Shown: positions 2,037-52,912 of the stretch, piece by piece | Position numbering within the stretch: the stretch's first letter is position 1 | Layout of the letters: each line of letters opens with the position of its first letter | DNA from: Dongia mobilis | GTDB lineage: Bacteria > Pseudomonadota > Alphaproteobacteria > Dongiales > Dongiaceae | Direction of reading: 5' to 3' | Assembly (NCBI RefSeq): GCF_945906275.1 | Contig: NZ_CAMDRA010000004.1 | Coordinates: 1-52,912, forward strand | Length of the DNA stretch: 52,912 bases | Program-made: the position numbers and the translations under genes | Notes under the pieces: generated by a model | Database searches by the model: none | Seen by the model: the letters and a program-made list of their open reading frames with translations, nothing else | Told to the model about the DNA's origin: nothing

Positions 2037-2061
2037 ACAACAATCCAGCCTTCCCTCCCTT

Positions 2062-2150
2062 GTCATCCCCCGCGAAAGCGGGGGATCCATGATGGATGCC
2101 CCGGTCCCGCCGACGAATGTCGGCATTCGCCGACAGGGCCGGGGCATGAC
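2062..2150. repeat. Composite hairpin: GTCATCCCCCGC hairpin followed by a nested hairpin carrying the 26-bp module
   Basis: Stem ATGCCCCGGTCCC...AGGGCCGGGGCAT (2096..2147) with GCCGACGAATGTCGGCATTCGCCGAC at 2109..2134. Confidence 0.9.
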
Positions 2151-19254: not shown

Positions 19255-19341
19255 CGTCATGGTCCGCAAAGGCGGACCACCCACGAATTCCTTGGTGTTG
19301 GCGACAAACTCGTGGGTGGTCCGCCTTTGCGGACCATGACG
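19255..19341. repeat. Perfect 32-bp inverted repeat pair of the GGTGGTCCGC...GCGGACCATGACG family
   Basis: 19255..19286 is the exact reverse complement of 19310..19341, 23-nt spacer; each arm is itself a hairpin. Confidence 0.95.
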
Positions 19342-26351: not shown

Positions 26352-26410
26352 TCGTCATGGTCCGCCGTCGGCGAAGGCCGACATTCGTCGGCTGTGGCCG
26401 ACCATGACGA
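26352..26410. repeat. Nested hairpin: TCGTCATGGTC...GACCATGACGA stem with 26-bp module in the apex
   Basis: Module GTCGGCGAAGGCCGACATTCGTCGGC at 26367..26392, one mismatch to the other copies. Confidence 0.9.
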
Positions 26411-27304: not shown

Positions 27305-27346
27305 GTTGTTATCTGTCTCTACTCGGCTTCATTTGTCATTTGCTCT

Positions 27347-27398
27347 CCCTCGCCCCGCCGCCGACGAATGTCGGCATTCGCCGACTGCGGGGAGAGGG
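27347..27398. repeat. Nested hairpin: CCCTCGCCCCGC...GCGGGGAGAGGG stem with 26-bp module in the apex
   Basis: Module GCCGACGAATGTCGGCATTCGCCGAC at 27360..27385, between parB and parA. Confidence 0.9.
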
Positions 27399-27421
27399 TC
27401 GAGGTGGGGGGCCTCAGTAGC

Positions 27422-28866: not shown

Positions 28867-30743
28867 GCGCTCTGCCTCTCCGCCCGATGCCGGCGGACAT
28901 GGCGCAGCAGGATGGTGAGCGCTGCGGGGGTGACCCCGGAAATGCGCTGGGCGGCACCCAGCGATGCCGGCCGGGCCGCTTTCAGCTTCTCGCGCACTTC
29001 GGTCGAGAGCGAGCCGATCTGGTCGTAATCAAGATCTTCTGGCAACAGCAGGGCCTCATCCTTGCGGAAGGCAACGATGTCGGCGTCCTGGCGCTTCAGA
29101 TATCCGGCATAGCGCCCGTCGATCTCGATCTGCTCGGCGATTTCCGGGGCGAAACCGTCGATTTCCGGCCAGATCTCGGAGAGGCGCGGCATGGTGATCT
29201 CGGGGTAAGCCAGCAGCCCCAACGCCGTCCGGCGCTGGCCGTCCTGGTTGATATTGAAGCCCTCGGCCTTCAGCTCATTGGGCGTCGCCGAGAGCGATTG
29301 CATGGTCGCCCGCGCCGTTTCCAGCGCCGCCATCTTGGCGGAAAAGGCTGATTCACGGGGCTTTCCCACGCATCCCCAGGCCAGGCCCAAGGGCGTCAGG
29401 CGCTGGTCGGCATTATCCTGGCGGAGCTGCAGCCGGTATTCGGCGCGGCTGGTGAACATGCGGTAGGGCTCGGCGGTGCCATGCGACACGAGGTCGTCGA
29501 CCATGACACCTATATAGGCCGTGGCCCGGTCCAGCGTCACACCCTCCCCGGCTCCACCGGCCAGGCGCGCGGCATTCAAGCCCGCCATCAAGCCTTGCGC
29601 CGCTGCCTCTTCATAACCCGTGGTGCCGTTGATCTGCCCGGCGAGGAACAGGCCCGGCATGGCGCGCAGCTCCAGACTGGCTTTGAGCGCCCGCGGATCG
29701 ACGAAATCATATTCGATCGCATAACCCGGCCGCAGCATGACCGCGTGTTCCAGGCCGACGATGGTCTTCAGCAACCCCGCCTGCACATCGGCCGGCAGCG
29801 AGGTCGAAATACCGTTGGGATAGACCGTGTCGTCATCCAGCCCTTCCGGCTCCAGGAAGATCTGGTGCCGGTCCTTCTCGGCGAACCGCACCACCTTGTC
29901 CTCGATCGAGGGGCAATAGCGCGGCCCCGTCCCTTCGATCTGGCCCGAATAGATGGGCGCCCGGTGCAGGTTTTCGCGAATGAGGTCGTGTCCGGCAGCC
30001 GAGGTATAGGTGATGCCGCAGGCGATCTGTGGCGTCGTGATGCCGGCGGTGAGATAGGACATCGGCACCGGCGGATTGTCGCCGGGCTGTGACTCCAGGG
30101 ATTTCCAGTCGATGGTGCGACCGTCAAGACGCGGTGGCGTCCCGGTCTTGAGCCGCCCCATGGGCAGGCCCAGCCGATAAAGGGTCTGGGCGAGTTGCCT
30201 GGAGGGCGCTTCGTCGACGCGGCCGGCCGGGATGCGCTCTTCGCCGCAATGGATGAGGCCATTGAGGAAAGTCCCGGTGGTGAGCACCACGGCGGCGCAA
30301 GCCAGGCGCAGCCCAGCCTCGGTGATCACGGCGGCGACACGGCCATCGGCCCCGATTTCCAGATCCCCGGCGGCACCGGCCAGGATGGAGAGGTTCGGCT
30401 GTTCGGCCAGAAGCGCCTGGACGGCCTGGCGGTAGAGCTTACGGTCGGCCTGGGCGCGGGGGCCGCGGACCGCCGGGCCTTTGGACTGGTTGAGCATGCG
30501 GAACTGGATGCCGCCCTGGTCGATGGCCTTCGCCATGATCCCGTCGAGGGCGTCGATCTCGCGCACCAGATGGCCCTTGGCCAGGCCACCGATGGCCGGG
30601 TTGCACGACATCTCGCCGATCTTCCGGGGATCGTGGGTCAGGAGCAGCGTGCGGGCGCCCAGGCGCGCGGATGCCGCGGCAGCCTCCGTCCCGGCATGGC
30701 CGCCACCCACCACGATAACATCAAATTTCAGGTCATCATTCAT
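28863..30743 (-). CDS. mnmG: tRNA uridine-5-carboxymethylaminomethyl(34) synthesis enzyme MnmG
   Basis: [47 protein letters not shown]. Confidence 0.98.
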
Positions 30744-45847: not shown

Positions 45848-45963
45848 GTGAAACGCTCCTCGCACATGGTGGCGACAAACGTTCCAGGGCGGACCACGAC
45901 GGACCACGCAAGCCCTTGATCGCAAACGCGATTCCGGGCCTGTTGCGGGCGTCATGATCTCGT

Positions 45964-46118
45964 CTTCTTCCATCCGGACTATGACCGTCGGCTCAGGATT
46001 TCGACCTGATCTGCTTGACCCAATGCCTTGCGGCGCTGGCGCTCGCGGGCTCGACATATGGGGGTTTCCCCCAGAATGCCCTACCGCCGGTGGGGATTTT
46101 CACCCCGCCCTGAAGACG
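45964..46118 (-). ncRNA. FMN riboswitch (RFN element) upstream of ribB
   Basis: Reverse strand cttcagggcggggtgaaaatccccaccggcggtagg...agcccgcgagcg...gatcaggtcgaaatcctgagccgacggtcatagtccggatggaagaag. Confidence 0.97.
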
Positions 46119-46201
46119 TATTGACGTGTTGCATCAGTAACGGGGGCAACATGGCAGGTCGCCCCCGACCCCGTCAAGGACCCCCAAATCCGTCACGGAA
46201 T

Positions 46202-49862: not shown

Positions 49863-50728
49863 ACGAGATGGATCCAAGGACGCTTACCGGAAAGACGGTG
49901 GTGGCCGGCGTGTTCGGCTGGCCGATCAATCATTCGCGCTCGCCCCGCCTCCATGGCTATTGGCTGGCGAAATACGGCATCGACGGCGCCTATCTCCCCT
50001 TCGCGACGCGGCCGGAGAACCTGGTCGATGCCATCCGGGCATTACCCAAGCTGGGCTTCAAAGGCGGCAACATCACGCTGCCGCATAAGGAGCGCGCGCT
50101 GGCCGCGGTGGATGACTTGAGCGACGTCGCGCGGCGCATCGGCGCCGTCAACACGCTTGTTGTGCGGGAGGATGGGACGATCCTTGGCGACAATTCGGAT
50201 GGCTACGGCTTCCTGCAGCATCTGATGACAAGCGCCCCGCATTGGCGGGCGGAGGCGGGACCGGCGGTGGTGCTGGGGGCCGGTGGTGCGGCACGCGCCA
50301 TCATCGTGGCGCTCATCGATGCGGGCGTGCCCAAGATCATCCTCACCAACCGCACCGAATCCCGCGCCGACAATCTCGCGCGGGAGCTGGGTGGCGATGT
50401 CAGCGGCCGGATCGAGGTCATTGACTGGACCTTGCGCGAAGCGGCGCTTGAGGGGGCGGGCCTGCTGGTCAACACCACGCAATTGGGCCAGGCGGGACAA
50501 GCGCCGCTGCAGCTCGATTTGCGGCACCTGCCACCCGGCGCCGTGGTCGACGACATCGTCTATGTGCCGCTGGAAACTCCTTTGCTCGCGGCAGCCCGCG
50601 CGCGCGGCAATGCGGTCGTGGACGGCATCGGCATGCTGCTCCACCAAGCGCGCCCCGGCTTCAAGGCCTGGTTCGGAGTCGAGCCGGAGGTGGATGCGGG
50701 CCTGCGGGAGTTTGTACTGCGGGGGTAG
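49859..50728 (+). CDS. aroE: Shikimate dehydrogenase
   Basis: GVFGWPINHSRSPRLHGYWLAKYGIDGAYLPFATRPENL...GGNITLPHKE. Confidence 0.97.
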   Translation: MNEMDPRTLTGKTVVAGVFGWPINHSRSPRLHGYWLAKYGIDGAYLPFATRPENLVDAIRALPKLGFKGGNITLPHKERALAAVDDLSDVARRIGAVNTLVVREDGTILGDNSDGYGFLQHLMTSAPHWRAEAGPAVVLGAGGAARAIIVALIDAGVPKIILTNRTESRADNLARELGGDVSGRIEVIDWTLREAALEGAGLLVNTTQLGQAGQAPLQLDLRHLPPGAVVDDIVYVPLETPLLAAARARGNAVVDGIGMLLHQARPGFKAWFGVEPEVDAGLREFVLRG

Positions 50729-50729
50729 A

Positions 50730-50766
50730 AACTCGTGGGTGGTCCGCCTTCGCGGACCATGACGAT
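50730..50766 (+). repeat. Dispersed hairpin repeat, 'empty' copy
   Basis: ACTCGTGGGTGGTCCGCCTTCGCGGACCATGACGATG. Confidence 0.9.
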
Positions 50767-50801
50767 GAAGGATGCGATCAGGCGCGGCAGGTTGCGCTTC
50801 T

Positions 50802-50906
50802 CCTCCCACCTTCAGGGGGGAGGTCGGGAGGGGGGCCGGTTTCAGTTCCGCTCTCACACAATCATCGCTGAGGCCCCCCACCTAACCTCCCCCTGAAGGT
50901 GGGAGG
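50802..50906. repeat. Large imperfect inverted repeat, about 35-bp arms
   Basis: CCTCCCACCTTCAGGGGGGAGGTcgGGAGGGGGGCC ... GGCCCCCCACCTAACCTCCCCCTGAAGGTGGGAGG. Confidence 0.9.
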
Positions 50907-50939
50907 GACTGCACCGAGGGCGTACACTCGCTTTCGTCA

Positions 50940-50963
50940 GTTGCTGACAGACTCGTGGGTGGT
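50940..50963 (+). repeat. Truncated copy of the hairpin repeat
   Basis: GTTGCTGACAGACTCGTGGGTGGT, then diverges. Confidence 0.75.
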
Positions 50964-51075
50964 AAGTTTATCCGCCGGCACGATTGTGTTGCCGAATCAA
51001 AAACCGGGACAAAAACTCCCATGGAGTTCGAACTCTCGCTGCTTGTGAAGATGCGTGGCGAAGCGGAAAGTCACT

Positions 51076-51786
51076 ATGATTGATAGTCAAGCTGGTGGAA
51101 AAGATGGCCGGCGACATTCCTCGCTGCGCGCGAGAGCAAGGGTGTTTGGCGCAACCATTCTGCTCCTTACAGCTCCCTCCAGCCACGCGGTGGCAGATTT
51201 CTACTGCGATGTAGCTCGTTCAGGTGCGGTAGAGCGTCGCGTGGCAATCGAAAGCAGCTACATTCTTATCGCACCGCGCGATGGCACCAGGTACCTCACT
51301 CTTTATGTTCAATTGCCTGGATTGGGAGGTGCAAAGGCCGAATTTGGAATGCCCGGGTTTGATCCGCAAAAAATTCTAACAGCAAAGAACTACGCCGATC
51401 TTCGCACCAACTCGCTGCTTTCCATTCAACGCAATGGAAAACAGATGGAGCCACTCATCGGTCGGCATCAAGTCGATCCTTCGAGATATCCGGGAAGCTG
51501 GATCGCCTATGAGAACTGCCTCAATTGTGGGTGGGTAATGCTCCTGCCGAAGGGCCGCGAGGCGGATCACTTCCTGGAATGTCCATCGCTGTCGGTGCCA
51601 GAGAAATATGACAGGAGATTTTCCTGCACCGTCTATGAGAACGTCCATGAAATCGGCGTGAGTTTCTCGGTCCCGAAAGTTGCGTTGCAGCACCTTGATG
51701 ATTTTCGCCGCGATGTGAAGACATTTGTCGGAAACCTCATCGCCCGCGGAAGCGAAGTGTGCCGACCTACCAAAAGAGAGATGTGA
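51076..51786 (+). CDS. Hypothetical secreted protein
   Basis: Signal-like FGATILLLTAPSSHAVADFYCDVARSG; no family recognised. Confidence 0.65.
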   Translation: MIDSQAGGKDGRRHSSLRARARVFGATILLLTAPSSHAVADFYCDVARSGAVERRVAIESSYILIAPRDGTRYLTLYVQLPGLGGAKAEFGMPGFDPQKILTAKNYADLRTNSLLSIQRNGKQMEPLIGRHQVDPSRYPGSWIAYENCLNCGWVMLLPKGREADHFLECPSLSVPEKYDRRFSCTVYENVHEIGVSFSVPKVALQHLDDFRRDVKTFVGNLIARGSEVCRPTKREM

Positions 51787-51810
51787 CGTTAGCGCAATGC
51801 TGCTCGCAAA

Positions 51811-51871
51811 CTCGTGGGTGGTCCGCCACAGCCGACGAATGTCGGCATTCGCCGACGGCGGACCATGACGG
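51811..51871 (+). repeat. Dispersed hairpin repeat, 'filled' copy with 26-bp module in apex
   Basis: ACTCGTGGGTGGTCCGCCACA[GCCGACGAATGTCGGCATTCGCCGAC]GGCGGACCATGACG. Confidence 0.93.
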
Positions 51872-51938
51872 TTAATATGAGGACGGCATGTGCTAAGCTA
51901 AACGTAATTCGAGATGCCTTGAGAAGGGACGGCAGAAG

Positions 51939-52178
51939 ATGGGCAAGACAATGCTACGGCGCTTCCTGCGTCTGCTGCTTTTCATTCCTGTGATTATTGC
52001 GCTGGTTGTGGTGGTGAATTTTGTCACCGCCTGGGAGAGACACCTGGATATCGATCTGCCGCGGCGGATAGAAGATGCTTTGATCGTTGTCTTGATGCTT
52101 TGCATCATATTGCTCTGTTACCGGATATTTCGCCGCGATCGGAAGAAGAAACGCAGCGATCCAGTGGACCGTCGATAG
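51939..52178 (+). CDS. Small hypothetical membrane protein
   Basis: Two hydrophobic segments: LLLFIPVIIALVVVVNFVTAW and ALIVVLMLCIILLCYRIF. Confidence 0.55.
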   Translation: MGKTMLRRFLRLLLFIPVIIALVVVVNFVTAWERHLDIDLPRRIEDALIVVLMLCIILLCYRIFRRDRKKKRSDPVDRR

Positions 52179-52190
52179 ATCGTCACTTCG

Positions 52191-52237
52191 TGTTGCCGAC
52201 AAATTCGTGGGTGGTCCGCCTTCGCGGACCATGACGA
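52191..52237 (+). repeat. Dispersed hairpin repeat, 'empty' copy with longest 5' extension
   Basis: TGTTGCCGACAAATTCGTGGGTGGTCCGCCTTCGCGGACCATGACGA. Confidence 0.9.
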
Positions 52238-52259
52238 TTAGGAAACCACCTTGGCCCGC

Positions 52260-52793
52260 TCACTCCCCGAAAATCGCGCGGGTCATTGTGGTGATCGCCG
52301 TCTTGGGGCTGAGGCCGCTTTCCTGCACGAGGCTGCGCCAGGTGTGGAAGCTTAAGGCGAGATGCAGCAGGTGGCGTTGGCGGGTGGGGATGCCGTCGGA
52401 GAGGACCGCCGCCATCCGGTCGAGGTGCGGGGTGACGCGGTGGGCGACGGTCTCGGCGGTCACCGGGTGGTGCTCGGCATCGCGCAGGATTGCGGCCACG
52501 AGTTCGGCGTTGCGGCCGTACCAGTCATAAAGCGCGCCGAGGCCCTTCACCAATCTCGTCTTGGGGTCAGCGATCCCGTGCCAGCTTTCCGCATCCGGCA
52601 TGGGGTCCCGTTCCTGCAGCAGCCCGGAACAGGCGCAGAAGAGGCCGCGATCGTCCGGGAAATGGGCATAATAGGTGTGGCGCTGGACGCCGGCGCGCTC
52701 GGCGATCATGCTGACCGTGGTGCGGGCCGGGCCGATCGTGCCGTGAAGATGGAGGGCCGCCTCGATGTAAGCGCCGGAGCAATAATCCCTCAC
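52260..52793 (-). CDS. TetR/AcrR-family transcriptional regulator
   Basis: ALHLHGTIGPARTTVSMIAERAGVQRHTYYAHFPDDRGLFCAC (TetR HTH). Confidence 0.92.
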   Translation of the reverse strand: MRDYCSGAYIEAALHLHGTIGPARTTVSMIAERAGVQRHTYYAHFPDDRGLFCACSGLLQERDPMPDAESWHGIADPKTRLVKGLGALYDWYGRNAELVAAILRDAEHHPVTAETVAHRVTPHLDRMAAVLSDGIPTRQRHLLHLALSFHTWRSLVQESGLSPKTAITTMTRAIFGE

Positions 52794-52912
52794 TGAAGCG
52801 GCCGGATAATCTGGTTGCGCCGGAGTAAAAGTCCGGCAGCAGATAGCCTTTTGCCTGATTGGCGGAAGGCGGAGGGATGAAGGGCGTGGAGTTATATGGA
52901 CGGGTTCGCCAT

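What the first reader, a model, noticed from the sequence alone, without database searches (positions are those of the whole stretch)
51811..52237. Filled and empty versions of one hairpin repeat: a 26-bp mini-hairpin inserted in the apex
Copies at 50730 and 52201 read GTGGGTGGTCCGCC-TTC-GCGGACCATGACG. The copy at 51811 has the same flanks, but its apex holds GCCGACGAATGTCGGCATTCGCCGAC. The same module is in the apex of three more hairpins (2109, 26367 inverted, 27360), at least two of which have unrelated stems. This looks like a short module that inserts at hairpin loops and makes hairpin-in-hairpin structures. I know of no named family matching this; mobility is inference.
Basis: partly seen in the sequence, partly recalled or inferred. 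Interest (0 to 1): 0.78.

Follow-up and report, generated by a model that had tools for sequence, protein, structure and literature searches.

The report
Tiny hairpin nested inside REP hairpins
A 26-base, self-folding DNA module is scattered through a group of bacteria (Dongia and relatives) almost always inside the tips of other, longer hairpin repeats, and comparison of related species shows the same hairpin with and without it, so it behaves like one of the smallest repeat units known to spread within genomes, by a mechanism that is not yet known.

Summary
The 26-mer is in the window at 2109+, 26367- (one mismatch), 27360+ and 51831+. The window's genome has 18 exact copies and 35 at up to 3 mismatches. 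I collected 168 distinct copies from 11 genomes of one family (Dongiaceae by named records) and one mislabelled MAG.

The copies sit in at least four clearly unrelated hairpin families: two CGTC-tagged REP types, a C-rich terminal-inverted-repeat hairpin, and MAG-specific stems. Orthologous empty and filled sites exist: the hslU spacer is empty in G003 and filled here, and the parA-parB spacer is an empty dimer in four species and filled in two. Different stems, sides of a dimer and orientations show several independent entries.

The module has its own rule, X-L-X'-L'-X, with hexamer X varying in all three places together. Insertion is not clean: the loop is replaced by the module plus a few bases, and sometimes a whole inner dimer segment is lost. 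RAYT transposase presence does not track the module.

Best reading: a short nested hairpin repeat, analogous to cyanobacterial SDRs, spread by copying (template switching or gene conversion at hairpin tips) and also carried along by mobile REP dimers. The mechanism is inferred, not shown.

The parts
51812..51870 (+). filled CGTC-type REP 'A' (CGTGGGTGGTCCGCC-aca-[26-mer]-GGCGGACCATGACG)
   Evidence: single-strand fold -19.7 (+) / -21.3 (-) kcal/mol, z -3.6 / -4.9
51831..51856 (+). 26-bp module X-L-X'-L'-X (GCCGAC GAAT GTCGGC ATTC GCCGAC)
   Evidence: exact
50733..50764 (+). empty REP A
   Evidence: -11.4 kcal/mol
52205..52236 (+). empty REP A
2109..2134 (+). module in the apex of a REP C hairpin (arms 2093-2108 and 2135-2151), downstream of hslU
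   Evidence: same REP empty (GGATGCCCCGG-CCAAG-CCGGGGCATGACA) in G003
2061..2089 (+). empty inverted partner REP of the 2109 copy (TGTCATCCCCCGCGAAAGCGGGGGATCCA)
26353..26409 (-). fused A-type REP with CATGACG at both ends, holding the module at 26367-26392 (-)
   Evidence: no REP at this spacer in G005, G006 and G007, other REPs in G002 and G003
27342..27410 (+). C-rich type B hairpin with module at 27360-27385, in the parA-parB spacer
   Evidence: filled in G007, empty dimer in G002, G003, G005, G006
19255..19341 (.). inverted pair of empty REP A copies (loop CTTTG): an empty-empty dimer

Best explanation
The 26-mer is a nested small dispersed repeat. Its core is three hexamers X-L-X'-L'-X, in which the middle one can pair with either neighbour on one strand, while the other strand can fold into one longer hairpin. 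It lives in the tips of REP-like hairpins in the Dongiaceae. Shown: it occurs in unrelated stems, in both orientations, in either member of a hairpin dimer, and the same orthologous hairpin can be empty or filled, so it has entered hairpins several times independently. Inferred: it is copied into a hairpin tip during replication or repair of that tip (stalling or cleavage of the extruded hairpin, then template switching or short gene conversion from a filled hairpin through a few matching C/G stem bases). It is also carried as a passenger when filled REP dimers move. Inferred origin: the X'-L'-X half is identical to the apex of the abundant REP variant ATGGTCGGCCTTCGCCGACCATGACG, so the module may be a collapsed dimer of that REP.
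For: Copies and controls. Arms pair far above control: 83 of 167 copies at score >=18, against 7 with a shuffled arm and 1 for distal flanks; 44 stem clusters. Orthologous filled/empty sites: hslU spacer, parA-parB spacer, and a mutM-like downstream dimer where G003 has hairpin 1 filled and G007 has hairpin 2 filled with the linker in the same orientation. Both module orientations in the same type B hairpin, with different junctions, and opposite orientation in CGTC REPs of G009 versus L055 and L138. Triple hexamer change GCGGAC/GTCCGC/GCGGAC in four copies; a scan for any other X in 0.93 Mb gave only scattered hits. L/L' association p=0.003 at one position (not corrected for relatedness). Flanks converge on C-rich left, G-rich right even where the empty REP C apex is GGG-TCAAG-CCC. 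RAYT absent from three copy-rich genomes.
Against: No copying event was observed and no strains of one species were compared. Junction microhomology cannot be told from the C-rich nature of the stems. A few copies lie in linkers, not apices. Much of the REP A set shares one junction (ACA...G), which fits spread of already filled REPs rather than repeated entry.
Confidence: 0.5

Rival explanations
1. Passenger model: the module entered a few REP-like families long ago, and nearly all present copies come from dispersal, inversion and deletion of filled REP dimers (REPINs). The module itself does not move now.
For: REP A copies share the junction ACA-[M]-G; partners lie at fixed spacing (REP A about 25, REP C 12-15, B about 40 bp); type B dimers have recognisable linkers; whole REPs come and go at orthologous spacers.
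Against: The same orthologous dimer is filled in hairpin 1 in one species and hairpin 2 in another; the same REP C hairpin is empty in G003 and filled here; both orientations within one hairpin type; 44 stem clusters including single-copy stems such as L017.
Confidence: 0.27
2. RAYT/HUH (Y1) transposition: a REP-associated tyrosine transposase cuts and pastes the folded single-stranded module into hairpin loops.
For: The window's genome has one RAYT-like gene (L039, PF01797 E 1.4e-13; NF047646 71 bits against a cut-off of 80); a CGTC REP dimer lies on one side of it.
Against: G003 (35 copies), G007 (30) and G009 (19) have no Y1 gene, while G015 has four and no module. Module boundaries carry no constant cleavage tetranucleotide. 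CGTC REPs are reported to lack a dedicated transposase (PMC3733652).
Confidence: 0.1
3. RNA-mediated copying: the transcribed hairpin is reverse-transcribed into new sites, as was proposed for Nostoc SDRs (from memory).
For: Size, compensatory changes and nesting resemble SDRs; REPs are often transcribed.
Against: No reverse transcriptase was looked for here; both orientations and loss of inner dimer DNA need a repair step anyway.
Confidence: 0.08
4. Selected function: the module is a protein site or RNA stabiliser kept at hairpin tips, appearing convergently or spread by selection; for instance it breaks the symmetry of palindromic dimers so that they survive.
For: Only one member of a dimer is filled in nearly every case.
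Against: Absence of double-filled dimers is not significant in the three sets with full counts (expected 1.7, P = 0.13). Presence at orthologous sites is not conserved.
Confidence: 0.05

Closest known systems
Small dispersed repeats (SDRs) of Nostoc/Anabaena (Elhai et al. 2008, from memory; not in the paper library)
   Same: 21-27 nt, hairpin with compensatory changes, embedded in other repeats, limited to one bacterial subgroup, no gene of its own.
   Different: Sequence not compared here; SDR hosts are heptamer repeats, HIP1 and minitransposons, whereas here hosts are REP hairpin apices; three-hexamer switch design.
CGTC-tagged REPs (Di Nocera et al. 2013, PMC3733652)
   Same: The host stems A and C and those of G009 fit: CGTC tag, AT-starting 8-9 bp stem, 4-5 nt loop, CCA tail, inverted dimers, no dedicated transposase.
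   Different: The module itself has no CGTC tag or tail and sits inside such REPs; loops with a nested 26-mer are not described in the text I read.
REPINs (Bertels and Rainey 2011, PMC3116915)
   Same: Inverted REP doublets with a spacer, probably moving as a unit; hosts here are such doublets.
   Different: GTAG type with a RAYT; no nested module.
Palindrome hosts of REPs in Anabaena variabilis, Thermomicrobium roseum and Halothiobacillus neapolitanus (PMC3733652, section 7)
   Same: A REP unit found within another palindrome.
   Different: There each REP family has one host palindrome, and hosts without a REP were not found in A. variabilis and H. neapolitanus; here many hosts, and empty hosts, are found.
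Mitochondrial double-hairpin elements (listed; papers not read)
   Same: Tiny double hairpins thought mobile, no gene.
   Different: Mitochondrial genomes; sequence not compared.

Membership tests
Host stems as CGTC-tagged REPs | CGTC (or TGTC/CCTC) tag next to an AT-starting 8-9 bp stem, loop 4-5 nt, CCA tail | tested here: met
   REP A rc CGTC-ATGGTCCGC-GAAG-GCGGACCAC-CCA; REP C CGTC-ATCCCCGGG-CTTGA-CCCGGGGAT-CCA; criteria
Host stems as CGTC-tagged REPs | Predominantly inverted dimers | tested here: met
   Inverted partner near 96 of 167 copies (score >=24), controls 4 and 14
The 26-mer as a CGTC or GTAG REP | CGTC or GTAG tag at one end | tested here: not met
   Core is GCCGAC...GCCGAC; flanking bases vary with the host
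REPIN/RAYT system | Cognate RAYT present in the genome | tested here: not met
   No Y1_Tnp in G003, G007, G009, G010
SDR-like nested small repeats | 20-30 nt unit embedded in other, unrelated repeats | tested here: met
SDR-like nested small repeats | Compensatory changes preserving a hairpin | tested here: met
   X changes together in all three places in GCGGAC copies; 128 of 168 copies keep both pairings exact.
SDR-like nested small repeats | Sequence homology with SDR1-8 | not tested
Known structured RNA (Rfam) | Match to a family | tested here: not met
   Only an FMN riboswitch elsewhere in the window

The most novel reading that the evidence does not exclude
A 26-bp DNA unit that spreads by itself, without any transposase, by being copied into the tips of extruded hairpins: hairpin apices act as its insertion niche, independent of stem sequence.
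Probability: 0.3. Interest if true: 0.8.

Novelty: new variant of a known kind. Interest (0 to 1): 0.58.

Why it matters
How REP-like palindromes and other very short repeats multiply, especially CGTC REPs with no known transposase, is open. Here a marker 26-mer can be followed from hairpin to hairpin across species, with empty and filled states at the same place. That makes the question testable: does DNA spread through replication or repair errors at hairpin tips rather than through a transposase?

Tried and rejected
Chance or assembly artefact: rejected (shuffles, reversed-pattern controls, several independent assemblies). One stem family only: rejected. RAYT as the mover: no correlation. 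Phage or plasmid carrier: no hit in IMG/VR; plasmids not searched. Known RNA: no Rfam hit. A law that both members of a dimer are never filled: it looked strong (one double case, L071, within 220 bp among 167; L052 and L190 carry tandem or partial second copies at closer range, which this count skipped) but is not significant in the sets with full counts (expected 1.7 doubles, P = 0.13). Wider class: 385 alphaproteobacterial genomes, hits only in the window's genus in that draw.

Full report
WHAT IS THERE. The window is contig 4 of a 3.72 Mb assembly in a small family whose named members are Dongia species. The 26-mer GCCGAC-GAAT-GTCGGC-[A/C]TTC-GCCGAC is at 2109+, 26367-, 27360+ and 51831+ (no match in 100 shuffles). 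The genome holds 18 copies exact but for A/C and 35 at up to 3 mismatches; reversed-pattern controls are zero. Eleven of the 17 family genomes have copies, with most in the window's genus (up to 35) and in G009 and G010. In 385 genomes drawn from the class only the four of the window's genus had any. One further genome, JASGCE MAG10, has about a dozen loci in stems of its own; NCBI calls it Paceibacterota, but its genes look proteobacterial.

HOSTS. I collected 168 distinct copies with flanks. Their arms pair far better than controls. Main hosts: REP A (CTCGTGGGTGGTCCGCC...GGCGGACCATGACG), REP C (GTGGATCCCCGGG...CCCGGGGATGACG), G009 types (CGTCATCCC...CTTGGCCTTGGGATCCACGAG), type B (CCCCCTCTCCCTAACCCTCCCCCAC...GTGGGGGGAGGG, with long complementary outer arms and an asymmetric linker between two hairpins), type D (CCCACC...CCTCCCCCTGAAGG), and MAG10 stems (CGCCTTCTGCCCC...AGGGCAGAACGCG; TTGCCCCTGCC...GGGGGCAAC). 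REPs A and C and the G009 types fit the CGTC-tagged REPs of Di Nocera et al..

FILLED AND EMPTY. hslU spacer: window GGATGCCCCGG-TCCC-[M]-AGGG-CCGGGGCATGACA; G003 GGATGCCCCGG-CCAAG-CCGGGGCATGACA; G005 another REP; no REP in G002, G004, G006, G007. parA-parB spacer: the window and G007 (89% identical over the query) have one hairpin with the module; G002, G003, G005 and G006 have a type B dimer of two empty hairpins, so the filled state looks derived and came with loss of the dimer's inner part. Downstream of a mutM-like gene: the dimer has the same linker orientation in both species, but hairpin 1 is filled in G003 and hairpin 2 in G007. In another spacer G003 and G007 carry type B dimers with the linker and the filled side reversed, and the window's genome carries a filled REP A plus another empty REP there. 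The 51811 locus itself lies in a 1.5 kb block between aroE and a TetR-like gene that G002, G003 and G005 lack altogether, so it has no orthologous counterpart; its empty twins at 50735 and 52207 are paralogues.

INDEPENDENCE. Type B hairpins hold the module in both orientations with different junctions (CCCCCACC-M-TGTGGGGGG and CCCCCCGCCC-M-GGTGGGGG) and on either side of the linker. The CGTC REPs of G009 hold it in the opposite orientation to L055 and L138. In REP C the empty apex GGG-TCAAG-CCC becomes GGG-TCCCC-M-AGGG-CCC, so the module arrives with a small C/G clamp. In REP A, TTC becomes ACA-M-G. Junctions are thus imprecise and host-specific.

ANATOMY. X-L-X'-L'-X: on the + strand the middle hexamer pairs with either neighbour; on the - strand the 26-mer folds as a 9 bp hairpin with a G.T wobble, so a filled REP A becomes one long hairpin (-21.3 against -11.4 kcal/mol when empty). 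X changes in all three places at once in GCGGAC copies, and once in MAG10 (GCTGAC). Both X pairings are exact in 128 of 168 copies. L2 and L'3 are associated (p=0.003, relatedness not corrected). The X'-L'-X part GTCGGCCTTCGCCGAC is the apex of a common REP variant, which suggests an origin from a collapsed dimer of that REP (inference).

DIMERS. About 96 of 167 copies have an inverted partner of similar stem within 220 bp (controls 4 and 14). A second module within 220 bp was seen for only one pair, in MAG10. Statistical support for exclusion of double filling is weak.

MECHANISM. A RAYT-like gene exists in the window's genome, but genomes rich in the module lack Y1 genes and one with four has no module. 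I favour copying at hairpin tips during replication or repair, plus carriage by REP dimers. The first part is inference from imprecise junctions, apex location, both orientations and reciprocal filled/empty states; the second follows from conserved spacing and shared junctions in REP A.

NOVELTY. The unit matches SDRs of cyanobacteria in size, folding and nesting (from memory), but its hosts and lineage differ. I found no report of it, in a library that lacks most subscription papers.

Noticed in passing
window 26353-26409: A REP with CATGACG at both ends (arms from two heads), as expected if the centre of an inverted REP dimer was deleted, with the module at its apex.
   Followed up: partly
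window 50728-52260: 1.5 kb block between aroE and a TetR-like gene, absent in G002, G003 and G005 where the two genes are adjacent; bounded by two nearly identical REP A copies in direct orientation and holding two small ORFs without family hits.
   Followed up: partly
window about 52766-52900: About 135 bp nearly identical to the ends of about 20 other contigs of the assembly; probably the end of an insertion sequence that breaks the assembly.
   Followed up: no
L039 990-1866: RAYT-like gene next to an inverted pair of CGTC-type REPs on one side; PMC3733652 states that no RAYT is flanked by CGTC units.
   Followed up: no
L122, L123, L125, L137 and L019, L035, L128: Module not at an apex but in the linker between CCCTCACCCC and CCCTCTCCCC (or CCCACC and CCTCCCCC) of C-rich repeats, four times at the same place.
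   Followed up: partly
L052, L190: Two modules (one partial in L190) in tandem within one hairpin in G009.
   Followed up: no
L069-L097 (JASGCE MAG10): Record titled Candidatus Paceibacterota carries SdhA, heme A synthase-like and GC about 52% contigs; the title is probably wrong.
   Followed up: partly
window 45958-46121 (-): FMN riboswitch (Rfam RF00050, 104.7 bits).
   Followed up: no
window near 30710 (-): TTTCACGTGAAAC, a parS-like site, a few kb from parA/parB.
   Followed up: no
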